NCBI RefSeq assembly: GCF_025263685.1
Contig: NZ_CP092109.1
Span: forward strand, 434,001-498,000
Direction: 5' to 3'
Length of the DNA stretch: 64,000 nucleotides
Source of the DNA: Geoalkalibacter halelectricus
GTDB taxonomy: Bacteria > Desulfobacterota > Desulfuromonadia > Desulfuromonadales > Geoalkalibacteraceae
Under the pieces are notes generated by a model. That model saw nothing but the letters and a program-made list of their open reading frames with translations. It had not been told where the DNA came from and did no database searches. The position numbers and the translations under genes are program-made. This document shows positions 7,498 through 37,937 of this stretch, piece after piece (position 1 is the stretch's first letter; each line of letters starts with the position of its first letter).

Positions 7498-8867
7498 GCA
7501 ACTTCCCTCCCCTCTTCAAAGGAGCGCACGTCGATCTTTCCGGTCACGGCGGCGGAGATAAGTGCCGCCCGATACTCCTGGAGCCTAGTGATAGCAGCTT
7601 CTATAGTGGATTGGAGAGCAGTCAGCTTTTCGGAGTGTTGGGTTAAAGAATCGACAATGCTCTTCTGTTCGGTTAAGGGCGGCAACAGGACCGGCAACCG
7701 ACCTAAAATAGTCGTGTTCAAGTTCTCCATTGTGGAGCCAACAGATACCAGCGACAAATATTCAGAAACGCCCCGGAATCCAAGAAATGCGTGCATAAAC
7801 CGAGGCAAAACCGAACGTTTAACCAATCGGACCCGAAGACATCCCGTCCCGCATAGCCAACCTTCTTCATTTTTGCCAACAAGGCCACACCGCCCCATTT
7901 CGCCACGGCGACCGAAGATTAAATCTCCCTCAAAAAGCTGATGCCGGGCGAGTTCATGATATTTTTCACCCGCAACCGTCCACCTGTGATCAGGGACAAG
8001 TTTGCCATTAATGATATTGGCCGGATTTATGATGGGGGTGCCATCATCGACATAATCACTTGCATGAAGTTGTGTTCCGAAGGGGCCGGTTTGCAATGAC
8101 TCGGAGACCCAACCAAGTCGTTTAACCTCCCAATGCGCCGGAATCTCCCCCAGCCACTCCACGCCGGAATCTTTCATCGGCACGCCGGGATCAAGCCCTT
8201 TGGTCACGGCTTGGCTGATCAGAGCCGTGCGCTTTTCCTGCAGCAGTTCGATGAGCCGCTGCTTCTTGGCGATGAGAGCATCAATGCGGGTGGTTTCGCG
8301 GTCGAGGAAGGCGGCAATGGTGGACTGCTCTTCGACGCAGGGCAGCAATGCGGGCAGGTTCCCGATATAATCCCAGCTCGCCCGAGGCATTTTCGCTCCG
8401 TAAGTCGATGAATCAACTATGTTGATGAAATCCTTTGAAAGCAGGTAGTAGAAAAGGTACCGAGGAACCAAGTCTTTTTGGCGAAGCACAAGGGCTTCAC
8501 CGGTGCAAAGTCCATTCGTTTGGGCATAGTAAACCTTGGCCAAATAAGGCCGAAGTTTTCCAAAAAGAACGTCTCCGGCAGAAAAGCAATTTGCAACCCC
8601 TTCCGGCTGACCTTCGGTTTCTACCCTGCGCCCCGTCCAGGATTCGATATTTTCAAGGCCGAAATACGGGCGGTCAGCCTCAGCTGACTCGACCTTTTCG
8701 TTTACAAGGCCCACCGCATATTTGAATCTCTTCAAATCCCAGTGTTCTGGAATTTCGCCAAGCCAACTCACCCCTGATTTTTTGTAGGCCGGATACACAT
8801 TCCATTCAGAACTGCTGGCCCCATCAAGCACCTTGACATCTTCAGAATCGAGCGCAGCTTCGCTCAT
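7494..8867 (-). CDS. hsdS: Type I restriction-modification specificity subunit S
   Basis: The DNA-recognition subunit, 457 aa, with the classic two-repeat layout. Each target-recognition domain opens with the same motif: SGVSWLGEIPEHWDLKR near residue 31 and SGVEWLGEIPAHWEVKR near residue 234. Each half ends with a long helix that acts as a spacer (about 188-225 and 400-448), both finishing in a similar ALISxAVTxG(L/K)D segment. The two halves would read the two parts of a bipartite target. The gene is less GC-rich than its surroundings, as is common for exchanged specificity genes. It overlaps hsdM and the regulator gene by 4 bp at each end. The target sequence cannot be predicted. Confidence 0.95.
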   Translation of the reverse strand: MSEAALDSEDVKVLDGASSSEWNVYPAYKKSGVSWLGEIPEHWDLKRFKYAVGLVNEKVESAEADRPYFGLENIESWTGRRVETEGQPEGVANCFSAGDVLFGKLRPYLAKVYYAQTNGLCTGEALVLRQKDLVPRYLFYYLLSKDFINIVDSSTYGAKMPRASWDYIGNLPALLPCVEEQSTIAAFLDRETTRIDALIAKKQRLIELLQEKRTALISQAVTKGLDPGVPMKDSGVEWLGEIPAHWEVKRLGWVSESLQTGPFGTQLHASDYVDDGTPIINPANIINGKLVPDHRWTVAGEKYHELARHQLFEGDLIFGRRGEMGRCGLVGKNEEGWLCGTGCLRVRLVKRSVLPRFMHAFLGFRGVSEYLSLVSVGSTMENLNTTILGRLPVLLPPLTEQKSIVDSLTQHSEKLTALQSTIEAAITRLQEYRAALISAAVTGKIDVRSFEEGREVA

Positions 8868-25270: not shown

Positions 25271-26683
25271 ATGCGCCTAACCCTCAAACAACAGATGTTT
25301 CTGGCACCCGCCACGGTCCTGACTCTCACCACCGTTTTGGTGCTTTTTCTCCAGTACACCTATTGGGATCTTTCGGTCAAGCGCCAGGAGCAGGCCAAGG
25401 TCAGCCAGACCTTCGTCGCCCTGGCCGAGGCCGACCTGGCCGCGCAGCGCATGCAGGGGCTGGTCGCGCACATCAGCCGGCGCGGGCAGCTCGATCTCAC
25501 CGCCCTCGAAACCTTGACCGAGCTGCATTACCATCTCTCCGGTGCGGTCAGGCGCATCCTCGATTTGATGATCCTGCCCGAGAGCACCCGCGCCCTGCTC
25601 AAGCAGGCCGTGACCGATCTCGATCCTCACCACGGCTTCGACGGCGAGCGTTTCCTGTCTGCCCTGGGGCTGCTACGCCCGCAACTGGTGGCCCTGGCGG
25701 AACAATCGCAACGGCGTCGCGAACAGCTACGCGACGTTCATGTGCAGAACATCGACCAGTTGGTGGCGCGCACTGCCTTGTTGACCATCATCGGCATCGG
25801 CACCGCCATCCCCCTGGGCACCTTGCTGGCTTTGTTCTTCGCCCGGCGCCTGCTGCGCCGCATCAAGACCCTCTCCGACAGCGCCGGGCGCATCGCGCGC
25901 GGCGACTTGACGCCTCCACCCGCCCCCCAGCGGGTACAGGACGAGCTCGACGACCTCGCCGTTTCCATCAACCAGATGACCGAGCGCCTGATTCGCGTGG
26001 TGAGCACCGAGAAGCTTCTCGAGGGCGCCGAGGAAGAGCGGCGGCGCATCGCCATGGATCTGCACGACCAGTCCCTCTCGGACCTCTCCGACATCCTGCG
26101 CGCCCTGCAAAATCTGCGGGTGCGCGAGGATTGCTGCGAGGACGTCGGAAAGATCGAGGAAGATCTGCAGCGTGCCATCACCAACCTGCGCGACGTGATG
26201 GATAACCTGCATCCTCAAACGCTTGAGATTCTCGGCCTCGGCGCGGCCCTGCAATCTCATTTCGAGCGCCATCTCGACAAAGATCATCTTCCCGAGTACC
26301 ATCTTTACATATCGCCGCAGGTCGAGGGACTGGGCCTGAGCCGCCTGTGCCAGCTTTCCCTCTATCGCATCGCCCTAGAAGCCGTGCACAACGTCATCAA
26401 GCACGCCAAGGCCAGCCGTTACGAAGTATCCCTCGACCGGCGCGACGACGGGGTGGTGCTGGTGGTGGAAGATAATGGCTGCGGCTTTCGTCCTCCAGCT
26501 CCGGACGCATCCGGTGGACGCGGCCTCAACAACATCCGCGAGCGGGCGCGCGCCAGGGGCGCGCGGGTCCAGTGGGGCGCCTCGCGATTTACCAGCGGCA
26601 CGCGCTTTGAACTCACTCTGCCGCTCAACGGCGCACCGCGCCAGGAGCGCGACAAAGGCATGATTGAACATGGAACCGGTTAA
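25271..26683 (+). CDS. NarX/LiaS-type sensor histidine kinase (HisKA_3)
   Basis: A 470-aa membrane kinase. Transmembrane helix 1 is residues 8-29, a ~135-residue extracytoplasmic helical sensor follows, then helix 2 (167-190) and a HAMP region. The dimerisation domain is of the HisKA_3 class: EEERRRIAMDLHDQSLSDLS with H265. The ATPase domain has EAVHNVIKHAKA, VEDNGCGF and GGRGLNNIRERA. These kinases normally pair with LuxR-type regulators, and one follows with a 14-bp overlap. The sensor part is helical like type-IV pilin/nitrate sensors but no ligand motif such as the NarX P box is seen. Confidence 0.92.
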   Translation: MRLTLKQQMFLAPATVLTLTTVLVLFLQYTYWDLSVKRQEQAKVSQTFVALAEADLAAQRMQGLVAHISRRGQLDLTALETLTELHYHLSGAVRRILDLMILPESTRALLKQAVTDLDPHHGFDGERFLSALGLLRPQLVALAEQSQRRREQLRDVHVQNIDQLVARTALLTIIGIGTAIPLGTLLALFFARRLLRRIKTLSDSAGRIARGDLTPPPAPQRVQDELDDLAVSINQMTERLIRVVSTEKLLEGAEEERRRIAMDLHDQSLSDLSDILRALQNLRVREDCCEDVGKIEEDLQRAITNLRDVMDNLHPQTLEILGLGAALQSHFERHLDKDHLPEYHLYISPQVEGLGLSRLCQLSLYRIALEAVHNVIKHAKASRYEVSLDRRDDGVVLVVEDNGCGFRPPAPDASGGRGLNNIRERARARGARVQWGASRFTSGTRFELTLPLNGAPRQERDKGMIEHGTG

Positions 26684-27416
26684 ATTTCTTATCGCCGAGG
26701 ACAATCCGAAGGATTTTGAATTTCTTGAACGCCTGCTGCGCGAGGAGGACTTCGTCGGCTCCATCGAGCGCGCCGACAACGGCCTGGCCGCCCTCAAGAT
26801 GGCCGCCCAGGTCGAGCGCCCCCTGGTCATCAGCGACATCCAGATGCCAGAGATGAACGGGGTGGATTTTGCCCGCGCCCTGTGGGACAAGCGCCCCCTG
26901 GCGCGCATCGTCTTCTGGAGCCAGTACAAGGACGAGATGTATGTGCGCGCCCTGCTGCGCATCGTGCCGCCCGAGACGGTCTACGGCTATGTGCTCAAAT
27001 CCAACCCACGCGACCGCATCGCCGCCGCCATCCGCACGGTGCTCATCGACGAGCAGTGCTGGATCGATCCCGAGGTGCGCAAGGTTCAGGGCCGCACCGG
27101 TCACAGCCAGACCTCGCTGTCCGACATCGAGTACGAGGCGTTGCTCGACATCTCCCTGGGACTCACCGACAATCTCATCGCCCAGCGCCGCTACCTGTCG
27201 CGCCGCGGCGTGCAGAGCCGGCTCAATTCCCTCTACGCCAAACTCGGCATCGATCAGGAGCAGTTTCACAGCGAGAAATTCGGCGATGCTTTCAACCTGC
27301 GCAACCGCGCCGTGGCCTGCGCCCTGCGCCGCGGACTGGTCAACGCCTTTGAACTCGAAAACGAGGAGCAGGACTTTCAATCCTGGCTCAAACGCTTTAA
27401 ATCCAGTCATCGCTGA
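26670..27416 (+). CDS. Response regulator with a C-terminal LuxR-like helical domain
   Basis: A 248-aa regulator overlapping its kinase by 14 bp. The receiver has D10/D11-type acidic residues (IAEDN), phosphoacceptor D56 in LVISDIQMPEMNG and K in YVLKSN. The output region (about 148-195) is helical and LuxR-like in length, LSDIEYEALLDISLGLTDNL followed by RRYLSRRGVQSRLNSLYAKLGI, where the recognition helix pattern V-x-S-x-L-x-x-x-Y-x-K-L-G-I matches NarL proteins, but the scaffold helix is degenerate. A ~55-residue tail follows. ATG 26670 is preferred over an upstream in-frame TTG. Confidence 0.85.
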   Translation: MEPVKFLIAEDNPKDFEFLERLLREEDFVGSIERADNGLAALKMAAQVERPLVISDIQMPEMNGVDFARALWDKRPLARIVFWSQYKDEMYVRALLRIVPPETVYGYVLKSNPRDRIAAAIRTVLIDEQCWIDPEVRKVQGRTGHSQTSLSDIEYEALLDISLGLTDNLIAQRRYLSRRGVQSRLNSLYAKLGIDQEQFHSEKFGDAFNLRNRAVACALRRGLVNAFELENEEQDFQSWLKRFKSSHR

Positions 27417-27461
27417 AAAGAGAACGCCCCGCCGCTTGCGCGACGGGGCGTTCTCTTTTCA
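27415..27461. terminator. Bidirectional terminator between convergent genes
   Basis: AAAAGAGAACGCCCCG and CGGGGCGTTCTCTTTT pair over 16 bp with a 12-base loop. It separates the NarL-like regulator (rightward) from the DUF4139 gene (leftward), whose stop is the next base. Confidence 0.88.
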
Positions 27462-28901
27462 TCAGTCGCGCACCAGGGCACGGTATTCGAGCCGCGCCTC
27501 GCCCTCGGCCGGCACCCTCACCTCCCACACCGCCAGGTGCGCGGCTTCCTTGCGATGGGGCAGGGTCTCGGATAGAATCTCCCAATCCCCCGGCAGGGGC
27601 TCTTCAATCCGCACCTCGACCGCTTGCTTCCCGCCATTTCTCAACCTCAGCTCATAGGCTGTTTCCACCACGGGGGCTTGCCGTTCACCACCGGCAATGC
27701 GCCGAAAGTCCGTTTGTTTGCGCGTGGCGCTCAAATCAAAGGCGTTGCCGAGTTGCAGCCGCACTTTTTCGTTGCGCGGGGTGTGGGCGAGGCGGTTTTC
27801 GCCGATGAAGCGGGTGCCGCCCTCGCCGTCCTCCTGGTAAACCCTCAGGATTCCCTGCGGCAGGGGCAGACCCAGGCCGTCCTGCTCTCGATTGACGAAT
27901 TCGAGTAACACCGCCACGGGCAACCGCTCGCCCAGATCGGCAAAGCGGCCGGAATAGTAGTAGTCGGCGCCACGCAGCACATATTCCTTGCGCACCGGCA
28001 CCGCGGCGGTGCTGAACAGGGCAACCTGTTTGGTCTGTCGATCCGCGAGGCTGGTGAGGCGCGGCAGCCGGTAGAGTTGATAGTCGAAGAAACTTTCCGC
28101 GGCCATTTTATCAGCTGGCGCCGCCATGGCCGCGCGCACCATCAGCTCAGGCTGCGGCCGCAGATCCTCGGGCACGCGCCCCACCTCGCCCGCCACCAGG
28201 TGCACCCGCACCTCGTCAAAAGAGGTGCCGCTCTGATTGGTCAACGTGGCCCAACTCGAGAGCGCCAGCCGTTCACCCGCATGGTCAAGCCGGGCCGCAT
28301 AATCGGCGCGCCAGGACATCCCGCCGGTGAGATAACTCAACTCCAGATCATAGGTGCCGGCCCAGGAATTCTCCAACACCGCCACCAGAGTCGGACGCTC
28401 ACGCAGGCCCGCGGGCAGCTCCGTGAACACCAGACGGCCGGGAATTTGCGTTTCTATGCGCTCACCCACCTGCAAGACCATCCCTTCGTCGCCGTAGGCG
28501 AGAAGGGTTGCGGCCTCAACGGTTTCAGCTCCCGTCTGGGGATGAGTGCGCACCCATTGAACCTGGCGACCCACGTGGTTTTTCAACAGATTCCGCGGGG
28601 TGAGCAGGTCAAAATCAAAGAACTGCTCATGGATGCTGATTTCGCCGCCGCCCTCGCGGACCTCCAGCAGCGCAGTTTGCGGATGCATCCGCGCACTGAC
28701 GTCGCCCAGAGCCAGCCGACTGACGCCGGAAGGCAGGCGCACCCGGCGAAGGTCCTTGACCAAGGCAAGATCCTCATTGTAGATGGTGACCTCCAATGCC
28801 CGGCGATCATCCAGGCTGGTGGTGATTTCCCCTGCCCAGGAAAGCGGGGCCAGGCCCAGCAGCAGCGCCGCGAGCAACAGCGCCGATAAAATCCGTTTCA
28901 T
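27462..28901 (-). CDS. Exported DUF4139 domain protein
   Basis: A 479-aa protein with a signal peptide (MKRILSALLLAALLLGLAPLSWA, cleavage after residue ~23). The C-terminal two thirds match the DUF4139 beta-rich fold: a repeated pattern of LELSYLTGGMSWRADYAARL, WATLTNQSGTSFDEVRVHLV and, near the end, YELRLRNGGKQAVEVRIEEPLPGDWEI, the hallmark of these proteins. Their function is unknown; relatives are annotated as mucoidy inhibitor-like. GGGAGG sits seven bases before ATG 28901. It may be the last gene of the leftward DUF2589 operon (52-bp gap) or have its own promoter. Confidence 0.88.
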   Translation of the reverse strand: MKRILSALLLAALLLGLAPLSWAGEITTSLDDRRALEVTIYNEDLALVKDLRRVRLPSGVSRLALGDVSARMHPQTALLEVREGGGEISIHEQFFDFDLLTPRNLLKNHVGRQVQWVRTHPQTGAETVEAATLLAYGDEGMVLQVGERIETQIPGRLVFTELPAGLRERPTLVAVLENSWAGTYDLELSYLTGGMSWRADYAARLDHAGERLALSSWATLTNQSGTSFDEVRVHLVAGEVGRVPEDLRPQPELMVRAAMAAPADKMAAESFFDYQLYRLPRLTSLADRQTKQVALFSTAAVPVRKEYVLRGADYYYSGRFADLGERLPVAVLLEFVNREQDGLGLPLPQGILRVYQEDGEGGTRFIGENRLAHTPRNEKVRLQLGNAFDLSATRKQTDFRRIAGGERQAPVVETAYELRLRNGGKQAVEVRIEEPLPGDWEILSETLPHRKEAAHLAVWEVRVPAEGEARLEYRALVRD

Positions 28902-28953
28902 GGAGAACCTCCCGAAGTAACTGGTCAGCATGGGGTCCGACCGCGCCAGCTTA

Positions 28954-29955
28954 TCAGATCTCTCCCAATTTGTCGCCTCGCGGCTCGGCATGTCGACTTG
29001 GATCCGCGCCGGCAGACCGAAAAGAGCGCCGCCGACGCCACCACCAGTGCAATCGAGCCATGCCGAGAGAGCGCAGCAGGCGCCGCCGTCGCGACTCAGG
29101 AGGCGCATCCGCGGGCGCATCCACCAGGAATAAGCCGCGCAGGGAGGTTTTCCCCAAATCCTCGCTTTCCCTCACCACCAACTCCTCGGCCGATAAATCC
29201 ATGTGCAGAAGCAAGGGACGGGCGCCCCGGGAGGGATCGTAACAATACAGCAGAACCATCGCGACGCTCGCTTCCCGGGCGGCAAAAACCACCAGGGTTT
29301 CACGGGCTTGAAAATCCGGACATTCCTGCTCGCGAATCAGCTCGACGACACAGGGGCGCCCGGCCTTGAGCTGTTCGCGAAGCCTGTACCATTCCCTGAC
29401 GCTCTGCGCCTTGAGCCAAGCTCTGCCGCCGGGACTGGGCAAACGCAGGTCGAGTTGCAGATCCTCTAAGAAAAAATCCCCGCGCGCCGTCAGCCGTTGG
29501 CGGAGATCACGGGTTACCGACAGCGCGGGCAGCCACTGCTCGGGCAGGCCGTACAGGATGCTGCGCCACTGAATCAGACGCGCGCTGCTCGCGGTCATGG
29601 CCTCCAGCCACAGCCGCCGCAGAAAATCCCGCCCCGCGGAATCAACCGACCCACGGACCGGCGGGCGCCGGGCCAGATAATAAGCCCGCGCGCCGAGCGC
29701 GTCCGCCGTTGCCAACCAGCCTTGGGGGTGCGAATTGTGCAGCCAGAAGCGCATGCGGCGCGGCAGGCCGTAGACATCGATCATGCCGCTGAAATCCGCG
29801 CGCAGGGCGAGAACCGCCTTTTCCAGGGCCGCAGCCTGGGCCTGCTGCAACTGTTCGGTTTCCTCGGCGCCGATCAGATCCGCCGGGCAGGAAAAACCAT
29901 CGCCGCGGGGATCGAAGCGGCTGTGGATGAGGGGGGAATTTTCCCAACCGTCCAC
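28954..29955 (-). CDS. Uncharacterised 333-aa protein, last gene of the DUF2589 operon
   Basis: No confident family. It starts at GTG 29955, two bases after the zinc-ribbon stop, with no clear ribosome site, so translation is probably coupled. No signal peptide or membrane span is seen. Residues ~195-285 (REWYRLREQLKAGRPCVVEL, then LVVFAARE, VLLYCYDPSRG and a late SLRGLFLVD) recall the C-terminal half of uncharacterised papain-like proteins that carry HQVLxYGY...YDPN...RGFF, but the His and Asn of that pattern are replaced here, so any peptidase activity is doubtful. The tail is very basic (RLHWWWRRRRS). This resemblance is from memory only. Confidence 0.6.
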   Translation of the reverse strand: MDGWENSPLIHSRFDPRGDGFSCPADLIGAEETEQLQQAQAAALEKAVLALRADFSGMIDVYGLPRRMRFWLHNSHPQGWLATADALGARAYYLARRPPVRGSVDSAGRDFLRRLWLEAMTASSARLIQWRSILYGLPEQWLPALSVTRDLRQRLTARGDFFLEDLQLDLRLPSPGGRAWLKAQSVREWYRLREQLKAGRPCVVELIREQECPDFQARETLVVFAAREASVAMVLLYCYDPSRGARPLLLHMDLSAEELVVRESEDLGKTSLRGLFLVDAPADAPPESRRRRLLRSLGMARLHWWWRRRRSFRSAGADPSRHAEPRGDKLGEI

Positions 29956-29957
29956 GA

Positions 29958-30173
29958 TCAGCCGGGTCCGGCACGCCGCAGGCGCTCGGCCTCATCCAGT
30001 CCCTCCTTGAGCTTCTGCAGCGCCTCCAGGGCGGGCTGGGATTGCTCGATATCGACGGACAGCCTGAGACCGCAGCCCGAGCAGAAAAAGGGGCGCCGCG
30101 CCAGCAGCAGATCCAGAGTGGTCGCGATATGAAAACCGCAACGCGGACAGGGTAAGCCTGGAGCGGAAGACAT
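29958..30173 (-). CDS. Small zinc-ribbon protein in the DUF2589 operon
   Basis: A 71-aa protein with a two-knuckle zinc ribbon, CPRCGFHI near residue 9 and CSGCGLRL near residue 31, spaced 22 residues apart, followed by a charged helix (QPALEALQKLKEGLDEAERLRR). It starts six bases after the DUF2589-B stop, with a GGAG site overlapping that gene's end, and ends two bases before the 333-aa gene. Such ribbons usually bind nucleic acid or another protein; nothing more specific can be said. Confidence 0.75.
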   Translation of the reverse strand: MSSAPGLPCPRCGFHIATTLDLLLARRPFFCSGCGLRLSVDIEQSQPALEALQKLKEGLDEAERLRRAGPG

Positions 30174-30179
30174 AAAGAA

Positions 30180-30767
30180 CTATTCTCCGGATTTGACTTC
30201 TCGGGCGGTGATACCCTGTTCCATGAGATGAAACAGACGTGCCATACCGGCCGGCACGTCGGCCTGAGAGATGTTGATCCTTACCTTCATCTGCATTTCC
30301 GTGGATCGGCCGCCCTGCCCGGCCGGATCGCGCGCCAGAGCCGCCTTGAAGTCCATGGGCTGAAGAGCCGAGAGCTCGCGGCTGTCCGGCGCCGCCATGC
30401 CGCGACGGGCGCTGCGTTGCACATCGACGATCTTGACGAAAAAATCGACTTGCGCGTCCCTGATCTGCAACGCTGGGACAGGCAGCAAAGACAGCAGCGG
30501 AACATCGATCCGCACCCGGCGCGGGCGGCCCTGGGCATCGGTGCTTTCCTGGTGAAAGCTCGCCATGCGCAACCGCCCGAAATCATCGCTTTGGCCCTGG
30601 CCGCCCGCGGATTCGAACCCAAACTCCCGGATGAACGCGGCCGTCGCCTGCGCCGCCTGGCTCTCCGCCGCGATCATGGCATGCAGAGGCGCACCGATCA
30701 ACTGGCTCAGCGACAGGGCCGTATTATTATAGAAACCCTCCTGCCGATCTGTCTTGTTTTCCGCCAT
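30180..30767 (-). CDS. DUF2589 family protein, paralogue B
   Basis: A 195-aa DUF2589 protein. It shares an ordered set of motifs with the paralogue at 31614-32171: LSQLIGAPLHAMIAAESQAA near the N-terminus, DVPLLSLLPVPALQIRDAQVD in the middle, and the C-terminal ISQADVPAGMARLFHLMEQG. ATG 30767 follows a GGGGGAT site and is preferred over 30791. No membrane segment or catalytic motif is evident; the fold looks like a beta-sandwich core bracketed by helices. The family has no known function. Here it is the third gene of a five-gene leftward set. Confidence 0.85.
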   Translation of the reverse strand: MAENKTDRQEGFYNNTALSLSQLIGAPLHAMIAAESQAAQATAAFIREFGFESAGGQGQSDDFGRLRMASFHQESTDAQGRPRRVRIDVPLLSLLPVPALQIRDAQVDFFVKIVDVQRSARRGMAAPDSRELSALQPMDFKAALARDPAGQGGRSTEMQMKVRINISQADVPAGMARLFHLMEQGITAREVKSGE

Positions 30768-30816
30768 GACGTTGATCCCCCTTGCCGACAATAAACGAAC
30801 GAGTGGAGCGCGCGGC

Positions 30817-31587
30817 CTATTCCGGGCTCAATGCGCGCCAGGTCCGTCCTTCCTCCTCGCCCTCGACCTGGGTCCAGTGGTAATTGCGCAGACCCGCCTT
30901 GATTTTGATGGATGAGAGGGCCTCCGGTGGCAGCTCGGCCAATGCGGCGCTGCCGATTTCCGCCAATACCCGACAGTCGCCGCCTTGCGCCCAAACCTCC
31001 CGCACTTCCTCCTGCAGGGCGGCCAGGACGCTTTTGATCTCCGTTTTCTCCAGAATGCGCTGCGCCAGGCCCTTGTCGGTTTCGCCGACACGTTTCATGC
31101 GATAGAGCAGCGCGCCGCCGATGACCGGCTTAAGTCCCTGCTGAGCAGCCTCAGAGTTGAAACGCCCGGATGCATCGATGAGGTTCGGATAATTGTTCAT
31201 CAGGTAGCGCAGCACATCCTGGCGCAAATCGATGCGGAATGCCTCACGCCCCAGTTCCCTGGCCAGCTCAGCCTTGCCGAGGGAGCGCGCGCCTGTTACG
31301 GCCGTTGCCAAAAAGCGACCGGCCAGAGCATTGCTCTGCCGCTCGAACAGGGCGGCCAGTTGCGCCTCGCGCCCTTCACCGCTGCCTCCGCGCAAATCAA
31401 CGCCGCTGAGAGCGAATTTCAGATCGATTTCCACTTCCTCGATCTCCGCGCGCGGCACCGGAAAGCGCCGCAGCAGGGAATTCTGCTCATAGTAGCGGCT
31501 GATATTGCGGGAAAAAATATCCGCGGCAAAACGCGCCTGCGCGATATCCCGCAACAATGCCCCCAGGATCTGATGCAGTTCTGCCAT
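30817..31587 (-). CDS. Uncharacterised 256-aa protein between the two DUF2589 genes
   Basis: A soluble, largely helical protein of unknown function. Near residue 40 it has LLRRFPVPRAEIEEVEIDLK followed by FAL, which mirrors the P-x-P-x-x-x-I-x-(E/D)-x-x-(I/V)-x-(F/L) strand motif of the flanking DUF2589 proteins. The rest includes VLRYLMNNYPNLIDASGRF and a C-terminal beta segment SIKIKAGLRNYHWTQVEGEE. The start at ATG 31587 has an AGAGG site; the gene lies 26 bases after DUF2589-A and 49 before DUF2589-B on the same strand, so the three are almost certainly cotranscribed and perhaps co-assembled. Confidence 0.72.
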   Translation of the reverse strand: MAELHQILGALLRDIAQARFAADIFSRNISRYYEQNSLLRRFPVPRAEIEEVEIDLKFALSGVDLRGGSGEGREAQLAALFERQSNALAGRFLATAVTGARSLGKAELARELGREAFRIDLRQDVLRYLMNNYPNLIDASGRFNSEAAQQGLKPVIGGALLYRMKRVGETDKGLAQRILEKTEIKSVLAALQEEVREVWAQGGDCRVLAEIGSAALAELPPEALSSIKIKAGLRNYHWTQVEGEEEGRTWRALSPE

Positions 31588-31613
31588 AAGACCTCTTTTC
31601 CCGGGAACAAGCC

Positions 31614-32171
31614 TTAAGGTTTGGCGGCTTTGATGTTATCCGTAAGAATGTTGAGCACCTTGGCCATCCCGGCGGGCACATCGTCCTGCACCGCGTGGAC
31701 ATTGATGTCCATGGTGTATTCCACCGAGTATTTGGAATTTTTTGTCGCGGACGAATCCTTCTTGCTCGAATAGGAGGCATCGAGCTTGGCACTGAAAAAC
31801 AGATATTTGGCACTGGCGGCCAGCGCCACCTTGCCTTCGGAGGATTCCGCCGAGGTGGTCGTGGCCTCCGTCGAAGCGTTGATGCTCGCCTTGAAATTGA
31901 TGGTCATGTCGTCGATGCGGATGAAGGGAATGGGCACGATGGTCAAAATCGGCACGGTCAACTTCTCCGCGCCCCCCGGCCCTTCATAATCAAAAGTGAC
32001 GTTGCGAACCTTTCCGTCCTTGTCGAAAGCGACTCCTTCAATAAAGCCCAGGGAGGATTGAGCGGCCTTGGCCTGCGCCTCGACCGCGGCCGTCATCGGA
32101 CCGCCAATCAGCGCTCCGAAGGGGATGTTGCCCAACTGCCTGGTCGCCGTGTCCTGATTGCCGTTCGCCAT
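31614..32171 (-). CDS. DUF2589 family protein, paralogue A
   Basis: A 185-aa DUF2589 protein and first gene of the five-gene unit. Motifs: IPFGALIGGPMTAAVEAQAK, then LTVPILTIVPIPFIRIDDMT followed by INFKASINAS, then a Ser/Thr/Lys-rich loop (TTSAESSEG, SYSSKKDSSATKNS), and DVPAGMAKVLNILTDNI at the end. ATG 32171 is fixed by AAGGAGG seven bases ahead. The alternating polar/hydrophobic strands in the middle could be a sandwich surface. No export signal is seen. Function unknown. Confidence 0.86.
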   Translation of the reverse strand: MANGNQDTATRQLGNIPFGALIGGPMTAAVEAQAKAAQSSLGFIEGVAFDKDGKVRNVTFDYEGPGGAEKLTVPILTIVPIPFIRIDDMTINFKASINASTEATTTSAESSEGKVALAASAKYLFFSAKLDASYSSKKDSSATKNSKYSVEYTMDINVHAVQDDVPAGMAKVLNILTDNIKAAKP

Positions 32172-32413
32172 GGTCGCCTCCTTGCCGGTCGACGGGTTCA
32201 AGGTTCGCTCACACCCGAGTGCATATCCCTTGCTACCCTTGGAGAAAAACAGACTTCAGCTTGCATTCAGTGTAGCCGAGGCAGGGGGGGAGTCAATGCG
32301 GCCGGGCAAAATCTTTAATGATAAACAATGGAAAAAGCCGGAAAGGGAATTCGAGATGGGGGCTTAAGGGCGGTCGGGATACGGACAGGCAGCAAACGAA
32401 GGTGCCTGATTTA

Positions 32414-34645
32414 TCAGGCATTCAGCCATCGATCGAGCTTTCGGGCCAGATCCTCGGCGCGAACGGGCTTGGCCAGGTAATCGTTCATGCCCGCATCCAG
32501 ACAGCGCTGCTCGTCGCCCTTCATGGCGTGGGCGGTCAGGGCGATGACGGGTGTGTTGCGGTTGGGAGAACCGCGCCGCCCTGAGCGCAGGGCTTCGATG
32601 ACGGCGAAGCCGTCGCATTCGGGCATCTGGATGTCGAGGAGTACCAGATCGTAAGGTTGAGCATCCAGGGCGGCGAGCGCCGCGCGCCCATCGTTGACGG
32701 CTTCGGCGCGCAGGCCGAGCTTCTCCAGCATGCGCAGGGCCACCAGGCGGTTGACGGCATTGTCCTCGGCCAGCAGGATGCGCGCCGCCGCGTGGCGAGC
32801 CAGTTCCACCGGCGGCGCCGCCAAAGTATCCGCGCGCGCTGTCGCCGGTTGGTGGGCGCGCGCCAAGGGCAGCTCGAACCAAAAGCAGGATCCTTTGCCG
32901 GGGTTGCTGTGCACGCCGATCTCACCGCCCATCATCTCCACCAGGCGCCGGCAGATGGCCAGCCCCAACCCCGTTCCGCCGAAGGCGCGGGCATGGGAGG
33001 CATCGAGCTGGCCGAAGGGTTGAAACAGTGCCTGCATCTTGTCGGGGGCAATGCCGATGCCCGTATCACGGACTTCAAACCGCAGCCGAACGCGCTGCGC
33101 CTCCTGGGCGACGAGTTTGACCAGGATGCGAATCTCGCCGGCGGCGGTGAATTTGACGGCATTGCCGCCCAGATTGAGCAGAATCTGACGCAGTCGGCCG
33201 GGATCACCGCGCAGGGCGCTCGGCACGTCGGGCTCCAGATGCCAGGCAAAGCCCAGAGCCTTCTCACGCGCGCCGTGCTCCAGCAGATCGGTCACCGCGC
33301 TCAGGATGTGGCGCAGATCAAAGTCGATGGATTGCAGATCCAGGCGCCCGGCCTCGATCTTGGAAAAGTCCAGAATATCATTGAGAATGCCGAGCAGCGC
33401 CTCGCAACTGCCGCGCACCGTGGCTGCGTACTGGCGCTGCTCGGCGGACAGCTCGGCTTCCAGCAGCAAACCCGCCATGCCGATGATGCCGTTCATGGGG
33501 GTACGGATCTCATGGCTCATGTTGGCCAGAAACTGGCTTTTAGCGGCGTTGGCGGCTTGCGCTTCCTCGGCCATGCGACGGCTCTCCTCCATGGCCTGTT
33601 GGAGCCGCGCGCGATTTTCCAACAGCCGGTGGCCGGCAAAACCCAGGGCGGCCAAAAAGATCGTGGGGGCGATGAGATTGACCCAGAAGTTGACCGCGAG
33701 CCGATCCAGGCGCGGCGCCGGCCCGTAGGAGGCGAGATAAGCGCCGAGACGCCCCTCCATGTCGTAAACCGGCGTGAAGGCGACCGCATGATAATGGCCA
33801 TCCAACTTGAGTCCAAACGCCGTGCTTTGGCCGGAGCGCAGCACCTTGCGAACCTCATCGCGCGCGCCGAGCAAGGTTTCGATTTTGGCGGCCCGCGCCG
33901 AGAGGGATGGTGCCGAATGGGGCAATTCGCGCCGGGGATCCTCGACCATCCAGGTGTCCGGATCCCCCGGCCAGGGGCCGTGCAGAGGCAGATCGGCGGG
34001 CAAGGCGGCATCGAGCATCTCTCGATTGAGCAGCAGTGCGAATTCATAGCCCCCGTCCAATTCGGCGATGAATCGGCGCAGATGCTCGAACGGCAAGCCC
34101 AGTTCGACACTGCCGAGGTGCCGGCCCTGGGCATCGATCACCGGGCGCACCAAACGAAAGGCCGACATGTTGCGTCCCACCTCAAATCCGCTCAGGGGTC
34201 GCAGTTCCCGGTTGGCCATGCGCACCGCGTAACGAAAACCCAGCAGGTTGTCGCCGAATTGGCTCGGGGCATGAAAGCGTAACAGGCTGGTGCCGTCAGG
34301 CAGATGAAAATGGATTTGCCGCAAACCCTTGTCGCTGAGCATGAGGTAAGTGGCGTGGAGGCGACGATAGAGCAAGGTGCGCGCCTCATCACGCTGCTCG
34401 GGATCGACAGAGGCGACCAGCAACTCCATGACGTCGGGGAGAAGAAGGTATTCCTGCATGTAGATGTCGAGCCCCTGCTCGAACATCTGCACGGTGGCGC
34501 GCCAGGCCATGCCCTGAATTTCGGCGCGCTGCGAGAGGTAGGCGGCGATCTGCTCGTCGTTGCGCCCCTTGAGGGAGACCGCCACCAAAGCCCAGGCCAA
34601 AAGCAGGACCAAAACCAGCAGAAAGCGCTGGGCCGGCTTGCTCAT
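32414..34645 (-). CDS. Hybrid sensor histidine kinase with extracytoplasmic Cache-like domain
   Basis: A 743-aa hybrid kinase. Transmembrane helix 1 is residues 9-25; a ~300-residue extracytoplasmic domain follows ([10 protein letters not shown]-type helix, [49 protein letters not shown]), typical of dCache_3-like sensors; helix 2 is near 325-345. Then a HisKA domain ([18 protein letters not shown]), an ATPase domain ([20 protein letters not shown]) and a C-terminal receiver ([28 protein letters not shown]-type ending). No HPt or partner regulator lies nearby, so the next relay step is elsewhere. Its start overlaps the stop of the PhnD-like gene by 4 bp. Confidence 0.92.
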
Positions 34646-35523
34646 GGCGCGAAAAATTCCTGCACGGACAGCTCGAGATCAAGCAGGACCCGTTCCAGGG
34701 ACTTATAGGCACCGGGCTCGACTTCGGCAAAGCCGTGGCCTCCGACCACCCAGGAAGCCCTGATTTCCGGCGTTGCTCGCAGAAGCGCTGCCACCAGATC
34801 GGCGACCTCGGCCGCGGGCAGGGTGCGGGTGTTGACCACCAGCGCAAAAACCGGCAGGGGTGGGGTCTGGGCCAAAACCCGCACTCCCAGATGGTGGTAG
34901 CGCCGGGCCACCAGGGTTTTCATGCCGCCCGCGGCAAATTCCGCGCGGGCGATGGCGAGGGCGACTTTCTCGTGATTGCCCAGATGAACGAATTCGACCG
35001 GCCGGGGGTTGATGCCGCCTTGCGCCAGCAGCCAGGATGTCGTCAGCGGACCGCAAGTACTCAGCCGCTGGGTGGAGGCCAGGCGCAGAGGGTTGAATGC
35101 GCCCAATTGCTCCACGCTGGCCACGCCGTCGAAAGGCGCGACCAGGGCGCAGGTGTAGGTGGCGCCGGCGCCTTGCTCAAGGAAAAACAAGACCGCCTGG
35201 GCATGGGGGGCCAATTCACGCAGCAGCAGGTAGGGCAGCGGACCGACCTCGGCAAGATCAAGGCGATCGTCGACAAAATCCTGCACCACCTGGGCATTGT
35301 CGCGCGGGTAGATCAGACGAATCTCGCGCCCCAGCTCGGCTTCGAGATAATCGAGAAAGGGGCGGGTGTCGGCCACCACTTTTTCCTGGTTGACCATGGG
35401 GATGGGGGAATAGCGCAGGGCGACCGCCGGCTCGGCGAAGAGAAACAACCCCAAAATGGCTGCCAGGGCGCACCAGATCTGCGAGGTTTTCCGGAACCGG
35501 CAATGCGAGGGGCGAGTGTTCAT
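34642..35523 (-). CDS. PhnD-like periplasmic substrate-binding protein
   Basis: A 293-aa secreted binding protein of the phosphate/phosphonate (PhnD) superfamily. The N-terminus is basic then hydrophobic ([20 protein letters not shown]), a signal peptide. The mature part has PhnD-type landmarks: [20 protein letters not shown], the helix [31 protein letters not shown], and [20 protein letters not shown] with [12 protein letters not shown]. No ABC permease or ATPase gene is adjacent. It is translated just before the hybrid kinase with an ATGA overlap, so it probably acts as the ligand-binding partner of that kinase. Start ATG 35523 has GGGAGA upstream. Confidence 0.88.
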
Positions 35524-35631
35524 GCCGCTTCTCCCGTCAAAAGAGGCCGATACGGCCTGGGGCTCCGCCAAACCGGCGAACCTCGGGAAATTCTACCGGA
35601 GACCGGACAATTGTGAAAGAAAAACAATTTT

Positions 35632-35671
35632 GCAACTTTTCAGCATGGGGTCGCAGTCCCCACACCGGGTG
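35632..35671. repeat. Dispersed hairpin repeat, copy 2
   Basis: Reads CAGCATGGGG - TCGCAGT - CCCCACACCGGGTG on the plus strand. Its flanks are the reverse complement of copy 1 (12046-12085), while the loop has the same orientation as copy 1, so loop and flanks are inverted relative to each other. It lies between the stop of the uvrD-like gene and the PhnD-like gene start. Confidence 0.6.
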
Positions 35672-35681
35672 AATTTAATTA

Positions 35682-37937
35682 TCAGGCTGGCTCCAGCCCG
35701 GCGAATTTGAGCAGCAATTTCTTCGGCCCGGCGGTGCTGAAATAGACCGTCACCTTCTGATTGTCGCCGCTGCCCTCGATGCGCCGCACGATGCCAACGC
35801 CGAACTTGAGATGGCGCACCCGTGCGCCGATGCGCAACCCTTCCTCGGCATCGGGCACCACCCGCACCTCCTCGACGAACTCATCCTCGAAGGGCGCATC
35901 GGCGGCGGCTGCCGAAGAAGCGGGAGCCTGCCCCATCTGCGCGAACACCGAGGCAAGATTGTGTCCCGAGGTTTTATTCAGGGCCGGAGCTACGCTCGGT
36001 TCCGGACGATCGAGCAGCTCGGCGGGGATCTCCGCGAGAAAAGGGCTGGGCGGGTTGAACTGATAGTCGCCGTAAACCCGGCGGCGGCGCGCATGGCTGA
36101 GATAGAGCTTTTCCATGGCGCGAGTCATGCCGACATAACACAGGCGCCGCTCTTCTTCCAGTTCCTCGCCGCCGCTGCCGGCGCGGCTGTGAGGAAAAAG
36201 CCCCTCCTCCATGCCGGTCATGAACACCACGGGGAATTCCAGGCCCTTGGCGGCGTGCAGGGTCATGAGGGTGACCCGATCGAGGCTGCCGTCATAGCTG
36301 TCGAGATCGGTGACCAGGGCGACCTGTTCGAGAAAATCCTGCAGACCGGTTTCCTTGGCGCGATGTTCCTCCATGCCGGCGAGCAGCTGCTCGAGGTTGC
36401 GCAGGCGCTCCCGCGCCTCTTCGGTGCCTTCCTCGCGCAAGGCCGGGCCATAGCCGCTGGCCTCGATGAGTTCGTTGGTCAGCTCCGGATAGGGCAGGTG
36501 TTCAAGCTTGGCGCGAAAACCCTCCAACAGCTCCGTGAACTCACCTACCCGCTTGGCCGCCGCCGCGCCCAAGGCTCCCTGCGCCACGGCCAGCTTGCAG
36601 GCGGAGAGAAAACCGCCCGCCTCCTCCTCGAAGGCGGCGATGCGGCCGACGGTGGTGTTGCCGATGCCGCGCGCCGGCACGTTGATGATGCGCCGCGCCG
36701 AGATGGAATCGGCCGGATTGACCAGCACGCGCAGATAGGCGAGCACGTCCTTGATCTCCATGCGCGAGAAGAACTTGATGCCGCCGACCATGACGTAGGG
36801 CAGGCGCGCCTCGACCAGGGCCTCCTCCAGGGGGCGCGACTGGGCGTTGGTGCGGTAGAACACCGCCACATCGCGCAGGTGCCGCCCGGCCTTGCGCAAA
36901 CGGGCGATTTCATCGGCGACAAAGCGCGCCTCCTCACGGTCGTCGGGCAGGGTTTCGAGGCTGATGGACTCACCCTGGGGATTTTCCGTCCACAGTTTTT
37001 TGCCCTTGCGCCCGCGATTCTGCGCCACCACCTCGCCCGCGGCGTCAAGGATGGTGCGTGTCGAGCGGTAGTTCTGCTCCAGGCGAATCACCGCGGCCTC
37101 GGGGTAGTCACGCTCGAAACCGAGGATGTTGCCAACCTCGGCGCCGCGCCAGCGGTAGATGGACTGGTCGTCGTCGCCCACCACGCACAGATTGCGCGTG
37201 CCGTCGGCGAGCAGACGGGTGAGCTGGTACTGCACGGCGTTGGTGTCCTGGAACTCATCCACCAGCACATGATGAAAGCGTCCCTGCCAGCGGCGGCGCA
37301 CCACGTCTTCCTGTTGCAGCAGATGGACGCAGAGCATGATCAAATCGCCAAAATCCAGGGCGTTGGCCTGGCGCAGGCGCTTCTGGTAGAGATCGTAGAT
37401 GCGCTTGAGCTGCTCGCCCCAGTGGTCGTCGCGATCCACCTCCTGGGGCAGCAGTCCGCGGTTCTTGCAGCCGTCGATGGCGGCGGCCGCGGCGCGCGGC
37501 TTGAAGAGTTTTTCGCTGACGTTGAGCTCGCGCAGCACATCGCGCAGCAGGCGCTCCTGGTCCTGGTCGTCGTAGATGGTGAAGTCGCCGGTGTAGCCCA
37601 GGGCGGCAATCTCGCGGCGCAGGATGCGTACGCACAAAGAATGAAAGGTCGACACCCAGGGCAGCTCGCCGCCGCCGAGAAGCTTTTCGATGCGGCCGCG
37701 CATCTCGCCCGCGGCCTTGTTGGTGAAGGTCACGGCGAGAATCTGCCAGGGTTCCAGACCGCGCTCGCGGATCAGCCAGGCGACGCGCTGGGTGAGGGTG
37801 CGGGTTTTGCCCGAGCCGGCGCCGGCAAGAATCAGCAAGGGGCCGTCGCCGTACTGCACGGCCTTGCGCTGCATGGGATTGAGGCCTGCAAGCAAATCAG
37901 GCGAGATATTTTTTTCCTGGGTCAATTGCTTCTTCAT
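35682..37937 (-). CDS. UvrD/PcrA-type ATP-dependent DNA helicase
   Basis: A 751-aa SF1A 3'-5' helicase for repair and replication. Motifs in order: Q-motif LNPMQRKAVQ, Walker A AGAGSGKT (38-45), Ia VTFTNKAAGEMR, III-type FHSLCVRILR, Walker B VLVDEFQDTN, GDDDQSIYRWRGA, then motifs IV-VI including VTLMTLHAAKGLEFPVVFM and the late VGMTRAMEKLYLSHA. The C-terminal ~60 residues form a Tudor-like domain (GARVRHLKFGVGIVRRIEGS ... KLLLKFAGLEP) that binds RNA polymerase in PcrA/UvrD. Length is typical. Its ATG overlaps the ClC gene stop by 4 bp, an odd functional pairing. Confidence 0.95.
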   Translation of the reverse strand: MKKQLTQEKNISPDLLAGLNPMQRKAVQYGDGPLLILAGAGSGKTRTLTQRVAWLIRERGLEPWQILAVTFTNKAAGEMRGRIEKLLGGGELPWVSTFHSLCVRILRREIAALGYTGDFTIYDDQDQERLLRDVLRELNVSEKLFKPRAAAAAIDGCKNRGLLPQEVDRDDHWGEQLKRIYDLYQKRLRQANALDFGDLIMLCVHLLQQEDVVRRRWQGRFHHVLVDEFQDTNAVQYQLTRLLADGTRNLCVVGDDDQSIYRWRGAEVGNILGFERDYPEAAVIRLEQNYRSTRTILDAAGEVVAQNRGRKGKKLWTENPQGESISLETLPDDREEARFVADEIARLRKAGRHLRDVAVFYRTNAQSRPLEEALVEARLPYVMVGGIKFFSRMEIKDVLAYLRVLVNPADSISARRIINVPARGIGNTTVGRIAAFEEEAGGFLSACKLAVAQGALGAAAAKRVGEFTELLEGFRAKLEHLPYPELTNELIEASGYGPALREEGTEEARERLRNLEQLLAGMEEHRAKETGLQDFLEQVALVTDLDSYDGSLDRVTLMTLHAAKGLEFPVVFMTGMEEGLFPHSRAGSGGEELEEERRLCYVGMTRAMEKLYLSHARRRRVYGDYQFNPPSPFLAEIPAELLDRPEPSVAPALNKTSGHNLASVFAQMGQAPASSAAAADAPFEDEFVEEVRVVPDAEEGLRIGARVRHLKFGVGIVRRIEGSGDNQKVTVYFSTAGPKKLLLKFAGLEPA

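What the first reader, a model, noticed from the sequence alone, without database searches (positions are those of the whole stretch)
28954..32171. Five-gene operon built around two DUF2589 proteins, with a third protein sharing their P-x-P strand motif
Seen: five leftward genes with gaps of 2 to 49 bp (DUF2589-A, 256 aa, DUF2589-B, zinc ribbon, 333 aa). The 256-aa protein carries FPVPRAEIEEVEIDL, which lines up with VPIPFIRIDDMTINF (A) and LPVPALQIRDAQVDF (B). Inference: the three core proteins share one fold and may form a hetero-oligomer; DUF2589 has no known function. The zinc ribbon and a degenerate papain-like 333-aa protein would be accessory parts. A membrane-shell, storage or defence role are all open.
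Basis: partly seen in the sequence, partly recalled or inferred. Interest (0 to 1): 0.72.

Follow-up and report, generated by a model that had tools for sequence, protein, structure and literature searches.

The report
Mobile five-gene DUF2589 operon
A compact set of five uncharacterised bacterial genes behaves as one movable unit, and its relatives often sit beside genes for cell-wall-cutting enzymes, which suggests an undescribed machine that handles such enzymes.

Summary
In detail: five leftward genes (DUF2589-A, 256 aa, DUF2589-B, zinc ribbon, 333 aa) with gaps of 2-49 bp. A Chitinophagales genome has the same five in the same order; the first four recur in three further loci outside this genus. 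A same-genus genome lacks exactly this unit: its flanking genes are 15 bp apart. The 256-aa protein founds a family unknown to Pfam; in 395 Bacteroidota genomes all 20 copies found lie within 164 bp of a DUF2589 match. Cell-wall hydrolases were recognised beside the cassette in 11 of 30 representative loci, eight looking leaderless; none of 124 distant genes matched the same families. Proteases, a phospholipase and nucleases occur too. The window has none of these. Best reading, inferred: a horizontally mobile multi-subunit module that carries or exports neighbouring leaderless enzymes; the fast-evolving 333-aa protein fills the variable slot. The literature search found one paper naming DUF2589, once.

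The parts
31614..32171 (-). DUF2589-A, 185 aa: N-terminal helix, P-x-P strand, beta-rich body, C-terminal helix (weak model)
   Evidence: PF11655 1.8e-27; dN/dS 0.04-0.07, lowest of the five; model
30817..31587 (-). 256-aa protein, founder of a family here called M256: N-terminal helix, P-x-P strand, helical middle, C-terminal strands (weak model)
   Evidence: 28 rows aligned; beside DUF2589 in every whole-genome hit; remote DUF2589 kin; model
30180..30767 (-). DUF2589-B, 195 aa
   Evidence: PF11655 1.5e-19; hhalign to the A family 99.8%
29958..30173 (-). zinc ribbon, 71 aa
   Evidence: Four cysteines kept in 4 of 4 members; family in 10 of 45 sources
28954..29955 (-). 333-aa protein, fast-evolving fifth gene; no conserved catalytic Cys/His
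   Evidence: Four of 45 sources: three of this genus and one Chitinophagales; dN/dS 0.37-0.43; alignment
32269..32296 (-). probable operon promoter TTGACT-16-TACACT, conserved in three congeners
   Evidence: consensus scan alone is not significant (2 found, 0.9 expected in the region)
28902..32413 (-). extent of the unit missing in a same-genus genome, between histidine kinase (32414-34645) and DUF4139 gene (27462-28901)

Best explanation
Shown: the five genes are one discrete unit, present or absent as a whole within the genus, found in the same order in another phylum, and part of a wider class of DUF2589 operons whose commonest core is DUF2589 plus M256 plus either DUF2589-B with a zinc ribbon or a helical protein (c3). 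Inferred: the DUF2589 and M256 proteins co-assemble through their shared N-terminal helix and P-x-P strand into a hetero-oligomer whose job is to carry, hold or export an enzyme encoded next to it. In many relatives that enzyme is a cell-wall hydrolase without an evident signal peptide (muramidase, amidase, lysozyme, endolysin), which cannot reach its substrate unaided, or a protease, phospholipase or nuclease. The likely use is antagonism or controlled lysis. In the window the variable last slot is taken by the 333-aa protein, probably an adaptor or cargo, not an active protease.
For: Unit: empty site in a same-genus genome, same five genes in Chitinophagales, promoter conserved in three congeners. 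Mobility: DUF2589 in 3 of 58 relatives, own genome included, all of this genus, 10 of 395 Desulfobacterota, 28 of 395 Bacteroidota; Desulfobacterota rows need at least 5 label changes in a tree of 40; plasmid copies in Vibrio, Burkholderia, Streptomyces and Smac51. Core partnership: M256 in 17 of 395 Bacteroidota genomes, all among the 28 with DUF2589, 20 of 20 copies within 164 bp; 3 of 297 Desulfobacterota, all beside DUF2589. Hydrolases: 11 of 146 near genes, in 11 of 30 representative loci, against 0 of 124 far genes matching the same families (p 0.001); endolysin PHROGs are frequent in the near top 25 and absent from the far top 25; close same-strand spacing in several, e.g. -17, -4, 9, 71 bp; eight of 11 show no N-terminal hydrophobic stretch.
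Against: In 19 of 30 representative loci no cell-wall hydrolase was recognised, the window among them. The hydrolase families were defined from the near set, outputs were capped at 25 families, and two of the 11 loci are related Vibrio plasmids. Three of the 11 hydrolases have hydrophobic N-termini (L082, L101, L102), and in L101 the gene faces the other way. No signal-peptide predictor was available. No direct link to export: no fold match, no pore or exporter recognised. The one published note is on an archaeon, where DUF2589 genes rise on lactate (PMC3949148, one passage), which a cell-wall role does not predict.
Confidence: 0.33

Rival explanations
1. An anti-phage or stress-triggered self-killing system: the DUF2589-M256 complex senses or gates, and the neighbouring hydrolase, protease, phospholipase or nuclease kills the cell.
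For: Patchy, mobile distribution; effector-like neighbours: subtilase and Exo_endo_phos (L070), patatin (L077), trypsin (L073); plasmid copies.
Against: No PADLOC hit for A, 256, B, 333, or for A, M256 and c3 of L079; only weak zinc-ribbon hits (E 0.017 and above). No sensor domain recognised. Whether the operons lie in defence islands was not surveyed.
Confidence: 0.2
2. Effector and adaptor genes of contractile injection systems (type VI or extracellular), with DUF2589 as loading factor.
For: Leaderless cell-wall hydrolases are plausible cargo; in L060 tail tube and sheath genes and a weak DUF6760 match lie about 3.5 kb from a DUF2589 plus peptidoglycan-binding operon.
Against: Sheath hits in 13 of 38 DUF2589 genomes and 4 of 20 without (p 0.21); sheath close to DUF2589 in 1 of 38; 25 of 38 carriers have no sheath hit.
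Confidence: 0.12
3. Domesticated prophage lysis cassette, in which the DUF2589 proteins do a holin-like job.
For: Endolysin-type enzymes by PHROG; matches on virus-labelled contigs L009, L010, L011, L099.
Against: No PHROG hit at E 0.1 for A, B, zinc ribbon, 333 or c3, and only phrog_4999 at 0.0017 for the 256-aa protein; one of 50,697 phage records matches A, an unverified 4-kb gut scaffold.
Confidence: 0.12
4. A structural or storage assembly (shell, filament or membrane coat) or envelope-maintenance machine; the neighbouring enzymes are incidental.
For: Several DUF2589 paralogues per operon; strongest purifying selection on A; archaeal DUF2589 genes respond to growth substrate (PMC3949148, one passage).
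Against: Recurrent hydrolase neighbours of unrelated families.
Confidence: 0.18

Closest known systems
PF11655 (DUF2589)
   Same: Two of the five proteins are full-length members.
   Different: The Pfam entry is a single domain of unknown function; the operon, the M256 partner, the zinc ribbon and the neighbours are not part of it.
Phage lysis cassettes (holin plus endolysin)
   Same: Endolysin-type enzymes, mostly leaderless by eye, beside small partner genes in some relatives.
   Different: No holin recognised; most carriers here are cellular genomes and plasmids; one to three DUF2589 genes plus M256, c3 or zinc ribbon per operon. The window has no endolysin.
Contractile injection system effector loci
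   Same: Variable hydrolytic genes after a conserved core; in one genome near sheath and tube genes.
   Different: 25 of 38 carriers have no sheath hit.

Membership tests
PF11655 DUF2589 (A and B) | Match above the curated cut-off (23 bits) | tested here: met
   A 97 bits, B 71.3 bits
PF11655 DUF2589 (256-aa protein) | Match above the curated cut-off | tested here: not met
   No DUF2589 hit at E up to 1; only remote similarity, first 14 non-member hits of its profile are DUF2589 at E 0.0039-0.096
Zinc ribbon | Two paired-cysteine knuckles | tested here: met
   C9, C12, C31, C34 in 4 of 4 members; no Pfam ribbon family reaches its cut-off
Papain-like cysteine peptidase (333-aa protein) | Conserved catalytic Cys and His | tested here: not met
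   No invariant C or H in 4 relatives
Papain-like cysteine peptidase (333-aa protein) | Papain fold | tested here: inconclusive
   No hit in Pfam, NCBIfam or PDB sequences; not modelled; the resemblance is recalled
Known anti-phage defence systems (PADLOC 2023) | Core proteins match a model | tested here: inconclusive
   No hits for A, 256, B, 333 or c3; zinc ribbon only at E 0.017 and above
Contractile injection system effectors | Adjacency or co-occurrence with sheath genes | tested here: not met
   13 of 38 carriers versus 4 of 20 non-carriers (p 0.21), close to DUF2589 in 1 of 38; in the window's genome the sheath hit is at 1.33 Mb, the operon at 0.46 Mb
Phage lysis cassette | Endolysin beside the core | tested here: inconclusive
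   Cell-wall hydrolase recognised in 11 of 30 representative loci, not in the window
Phage lysis cassette | Holin-type membrane protein | not tested
   One ORF of L008 with hydrophobic stretches (7669-8208) has no PHROG hit; no systematic test

The most novel reading that the evidence does not exclude
DUF2589 paralogues and M256 build a new kind of protein delivery or release device, independent of phages and contractile systems, that moves leaderless cell-wall hydrolases and other toxin-like enzymes across the membrane and is swapped between phyla as a cassette with interchangeable last genes.
Probability: 0.22. Interest if true: 0.88.

Novelty: categorically new. Interest (0 to 1): 0.6.

Why it matters
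DUF2589 is a family without function; searches of the held library found one paper naming it, none with PF11655 and none with 'DUF2589 domain-containing'. This work turns a single domain of unknown function into a defined multi-gene module with a new partner family found only beside it, a mapped presence/absence boundary, a minimal gene set and a concrete, testable client: the neighbouring leaderless hydrolases of relatives. If it exports or releases them, it would be a new route for protein delivery. 'Categorically new' here means that no known kind fitted in the tests made, not that a mechanism is proven.

Tried and rejected
Structure: two AlphaFold jobs with 5 and 4 rows gave weak models. 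Foldseek against PDB had no match at E 0.001 or better for either (best 0.13 and 0.32); VIA-align best Z 3.5 and 7.5, within its stated background. Rows for a SecB-like chaperone, SciW and PR-10 at Z 2.4-2.5 for residues 88-170 of A were not taken as evidence. The A profile hit a haemolytic lectin in PDB sequences at E 0.59, c3 only chains at E 0.14 and above, M256 and 333 none. A pore-forming reading was not pursued.

hhalign between M256 and DUF2589-A (E 0.00057, probability 29.6%, score 33.1) beat reversed (14.0) and all 60 column-shuffled decoys (highest 15.9), but 1 of 60 ten-column block shuffles scored higher (40.4) and another 31.4; so the order of elements adds little, and I lean on the profile ranking. 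There 37 reversed DUF2589 ORFs still score against the DUF2589-A profile at E up to 5, a sign of compositional bias, while the M256 profile's best reversed non-member hit is 0.27, itself a reversed DUF2589.

A link to contractile systems was tested and not found in general. PADLOC gave nothing usable. Viral-contig scans with M256 queries found nothing. Plasmid searches with the window's A, 333-aa and 256-aa proteins found nothing. The 333-aa profile found no other solid relative in 148 Desulfobacterota genomes (own genome apart, one hit E 0.003 with an inner stop). No Rfam match in 26000-36000, no tRNA in the window. A spaced promoter pattern matched nothing, not even the known site, probably because I mis-set the elements.
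Full report
WHAT IS THERE. Five ORFs lie head to tail on the minus strand at 28954-32171 with gaps of 26, 49, 6 and 2 bp. The first and third are DUF2589 proteins (PF11655); the 256-aa and 333-aa proteins match no Pfam or NCBIfam family above cut-off. The zinc ribbon keeps four cysteines in 4 of 4 aligned members. The genome is close to Geoalkalibacter (L007, with a 77% identical 256-aa protein, is a Geoalkalibacter MAG). A sigma-70-like site at 32296-32269 and a TTTATCATTAA block upstream of it are conserved in three congeners; the consensus scan alone is no evidence (2 found, 0.9 expected). dN/dS rises from 0.04-0.07 for A to 0.37-0.43 for the 333-aa gene, against 0.17-0.28 for the neighbouring kinase (dS 0.9-1.7, so approximate).

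THE UNIT IS DISCRETE AND MOBILE. A same-genus genome without a DUF2589 hit (G001) has orthologues of the upstream histidine kinase and the downstream DUF4139 gene with match edges 36 bp apart; by reading the sequence, 15 bp separate stop and start. DNA similarity to the window ends at 32423, ten bases inside the kinase gene, and resumes at 28787, inside the DUF4139 gene. In another genus of the family an ORF that reads like an aldo/keto reductase stands at the site (no family search). Insertion or loss cannot be told apart from these four genomes alone. DUF2589 occurs in 3 of 58 relatives, own genome included, all in this genus, 10 of 395 Desulfobacterota and 28 of 395 Bacteroidota. The same five genes in the same order occur in a Chitinophagales MAG, identities to the window 53% (A), 38% (256), 44% (B), 44% (Zn) and 24% (333). 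In a tree of 40 A-type proteins the 11 rows that I labelled Desulfobacterota need at least 5 label changes; two branches are long, and the window's own placement relative to the Chitinophagales row is an open fork, so its donor is unknown.

A NEW PARTNER FAMILY. I call the 256-aa family M256. Of 45 sources (window and 44 loci, nearly all fetched because they carry DUF2589) 28 hold it. Free of that bias, whole-genome searches found it in 17 of 395 Bacteroidota genomes, all among the 28 with DUF2589, and its 20 copies (21 matches, two being pieces of one gene) lie within 164 bp of a DUF2589 match; in 3 of 297 Desulfobacterota genomes, again beside DUF2589. Two main arrangements appear: A-M256-B-zinc ribbon (window, L007, L068, L008, L009, L069, L084; L010 breaks off after B), and A-M256-c3, where c3 is a protein of about 190 aa (19 loci; L091 has A, c3, a second DUF2589 and M256). 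c3 shows no profile similarity to M256 or DUF2589-A and was found in 17 of 38 DUF2589 genomes, 20 copies. Other operons lack M256: A-B-zinc ribbon-DUF2589 (L073, L082, L089), and forms with a protein of 84-94 aa that looks alike in L060-L063, L074 and L100-L102 (partly by reading).

IS M256 A DIVERGED DUF2589? The profile built from M256 rows alone has 14 DUF2589 proteins as its first 14 non-member hits among 4604 ORFs, of which 75 are labelled DUF2589 (E 0.0039 to 0.096); the best M256 hit of the DUF2589-A profile has E 0.00056 and is its best non-member; against reversed sequences the M256 profile's best non-member has E 0.27. The aligned part is the N-terminal helix and the P-x-P strand. 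Against this: 1 of 60 block-shuffled decoys beats the hhalign score, reversed DUF2589 sequences score against their own profile, and the models are weak. The M256 model has a helical middle (residues 71-200, block pLDDT 70-91) that the DUF2589 model lacks. I conclude that a shared N-terminal module is likely and a shared whole fold unproven.

NEIGHBOURS. I picked 30 of 50 sources by hand as representatives, dropping near-duplicates and fragment loci. Gene calls are a greedy choice of long ORFs and miss some real genes, the window's DUF4139 gene among them. ORFs of 110-1000 aa within 2.5 kb of the cassette form the near set (151; five dropped before counting: two antisense ORFs in the window and three DUF2589 genes, leaving 146), ORFs at least 4 kb away the far set (124, window excluded). 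Cell-wall enzymes near: muramidase in L009, L062 and L100; Amidase_2 in L008; GH25 in L082; peptidoglycan-binding proteins in L060 and L090; endolysins by PHROG in L103 and L077; and, by annotation, mutual similarity and a count of two SLT members, transglycosylase-like proteins in L101 and L102. That is 11 of 146 near and 0 of 124 far (phmmer, run on all 151 near rows; Fisher p 0.00097). The families were defined from the near set, the lists are cut at 25 families (of 171, 128, 59 and 121), and L101 and L102 are kin, so this is an indication, not a clean test. Endolysin PHROGs are frequent in the near top 25 (phrog_1224 in 4 members) and absent from the far top 25. By a hydropathy look, not a signal-peptide predictor, eight of the 11 lack an N-terminal hydrophobic stretch: L008, L009, L060, L062, L090, L103 by number, L100 by reading, L077 if its ATG is the start; L082, L101 and L102 have one. 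Other enzymes nearby: a subtilase 8-11 bp after c3 and an Exo_endo_phos protein (L070, with homologues at the same place in L072 and L085), patatin upstream (L077), trypsin (L073), Exo_endo_phos (L074; L008 by reading). L084 and L089 carry a small protein with an HG...STC pattern that I recall from clan CD peptidases; no call supports that name. In the window the next same-strand gene after the 333-aa gene encodes DUF4139 and belongs to the flank; the window itself has no recognised hydrolase.

MECHANISM. Shown: a discrete, patchily distributed multi-gene core under purifying selection with a variable end. Inferred: co-assembly of the DUF2589 and M256 subunits, and service to the enzyme next door. 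Enzymes that cut cell wall but lack a leader need an exporter or lysis; a like argument was made for archaeal hydrolases and sheath genes in PMC12352652, where the association had P 0.059 (passages read). Here carriers are not significantly richer in sheath genes (13 of 38 against 4 of 20, p 0.21), so a contractile system is not the general answer, though in L060 tube and sheath genes stand about 3.5 kb away. I put 0.33 on carriage or export, with defence, structure or storage, lysis-cassette and contractile-effector readings as rivals.

LITERATURE. DUF2589: one paper of 5.39 million, one passage, on Archaeoglobus genes AF0414-AF0417 up-regulated on lactate (PMC3949148; passage read). PF11655: none. 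'DUF2589 domain-containing': none. Four combination searches on hydrolase cargo, gene neighbourhoods and lysis listed no paper that I could see to be about this system (listings only). The library lacks most subscription journals and bioRxiv.

Noticed in passing
L060 1134-4374 and 7943-11764: Contractile-tail genes (gp19-like tube, sheath, weak DUF6760) about 3.5 kb from a divergent DUF2589 operon that ends in a peptidoglycan-binding protein overlapping DUF2589 by 4 bp.
   Followed up: partly
L095 9337-9630, L096 9062-9349, L097 9004-9294, L098 3786-4073: ORFs of about 95 aa with only the DUF2589 N-terminal part (the L095 one runs to the contig end).
   Followed up: no
L011 5971-6828: A 61-aa DUF2589 fragment next to a toxin-like ORF without Pfam hit on a virus-labelled contig.
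   Followed up: no
L010 2956-4956: DUF2589-B shortened to 160 aa, followed by an ORF that reads like an integrase.
   Followed up: no
L009 (MT839761.1): A gut scaffold deposited as 'Bacteriophage sp.' (UNVERIFIED) carries A-M256-B-zinc ribbon plus a muramidase; none of its six ORFs of 60 aa or more in that operon reads like a phage structural gene.
   Followed up: partly
L084 7631-7996, L089 11597-12025: Homologous small proteins after the cassette with a His-Gly and Ser-Thr-Cys pattern, no Pfam hit.
   Followed up: no
near set of 30 loci: Two-component genes are common close to the cassettes (HATPase_c in 6 and Response_reg in 5 of 146 near genes, neither in the far top 25); the window's upstream neighbour is a hybrid histidine kinase.
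   Followed up: no
window 32315-32325: TTTATCATTAA block upstream of the promoter, identical in three congeners, possible regulator site.
   Followed up: no
L142 7210-8331: In a related genus an ORF that reads like an aldo/keto reductase occupies the same site between kinase and DUF4139 gene, so the site may be an insertion hot spot.
   Followed up: no
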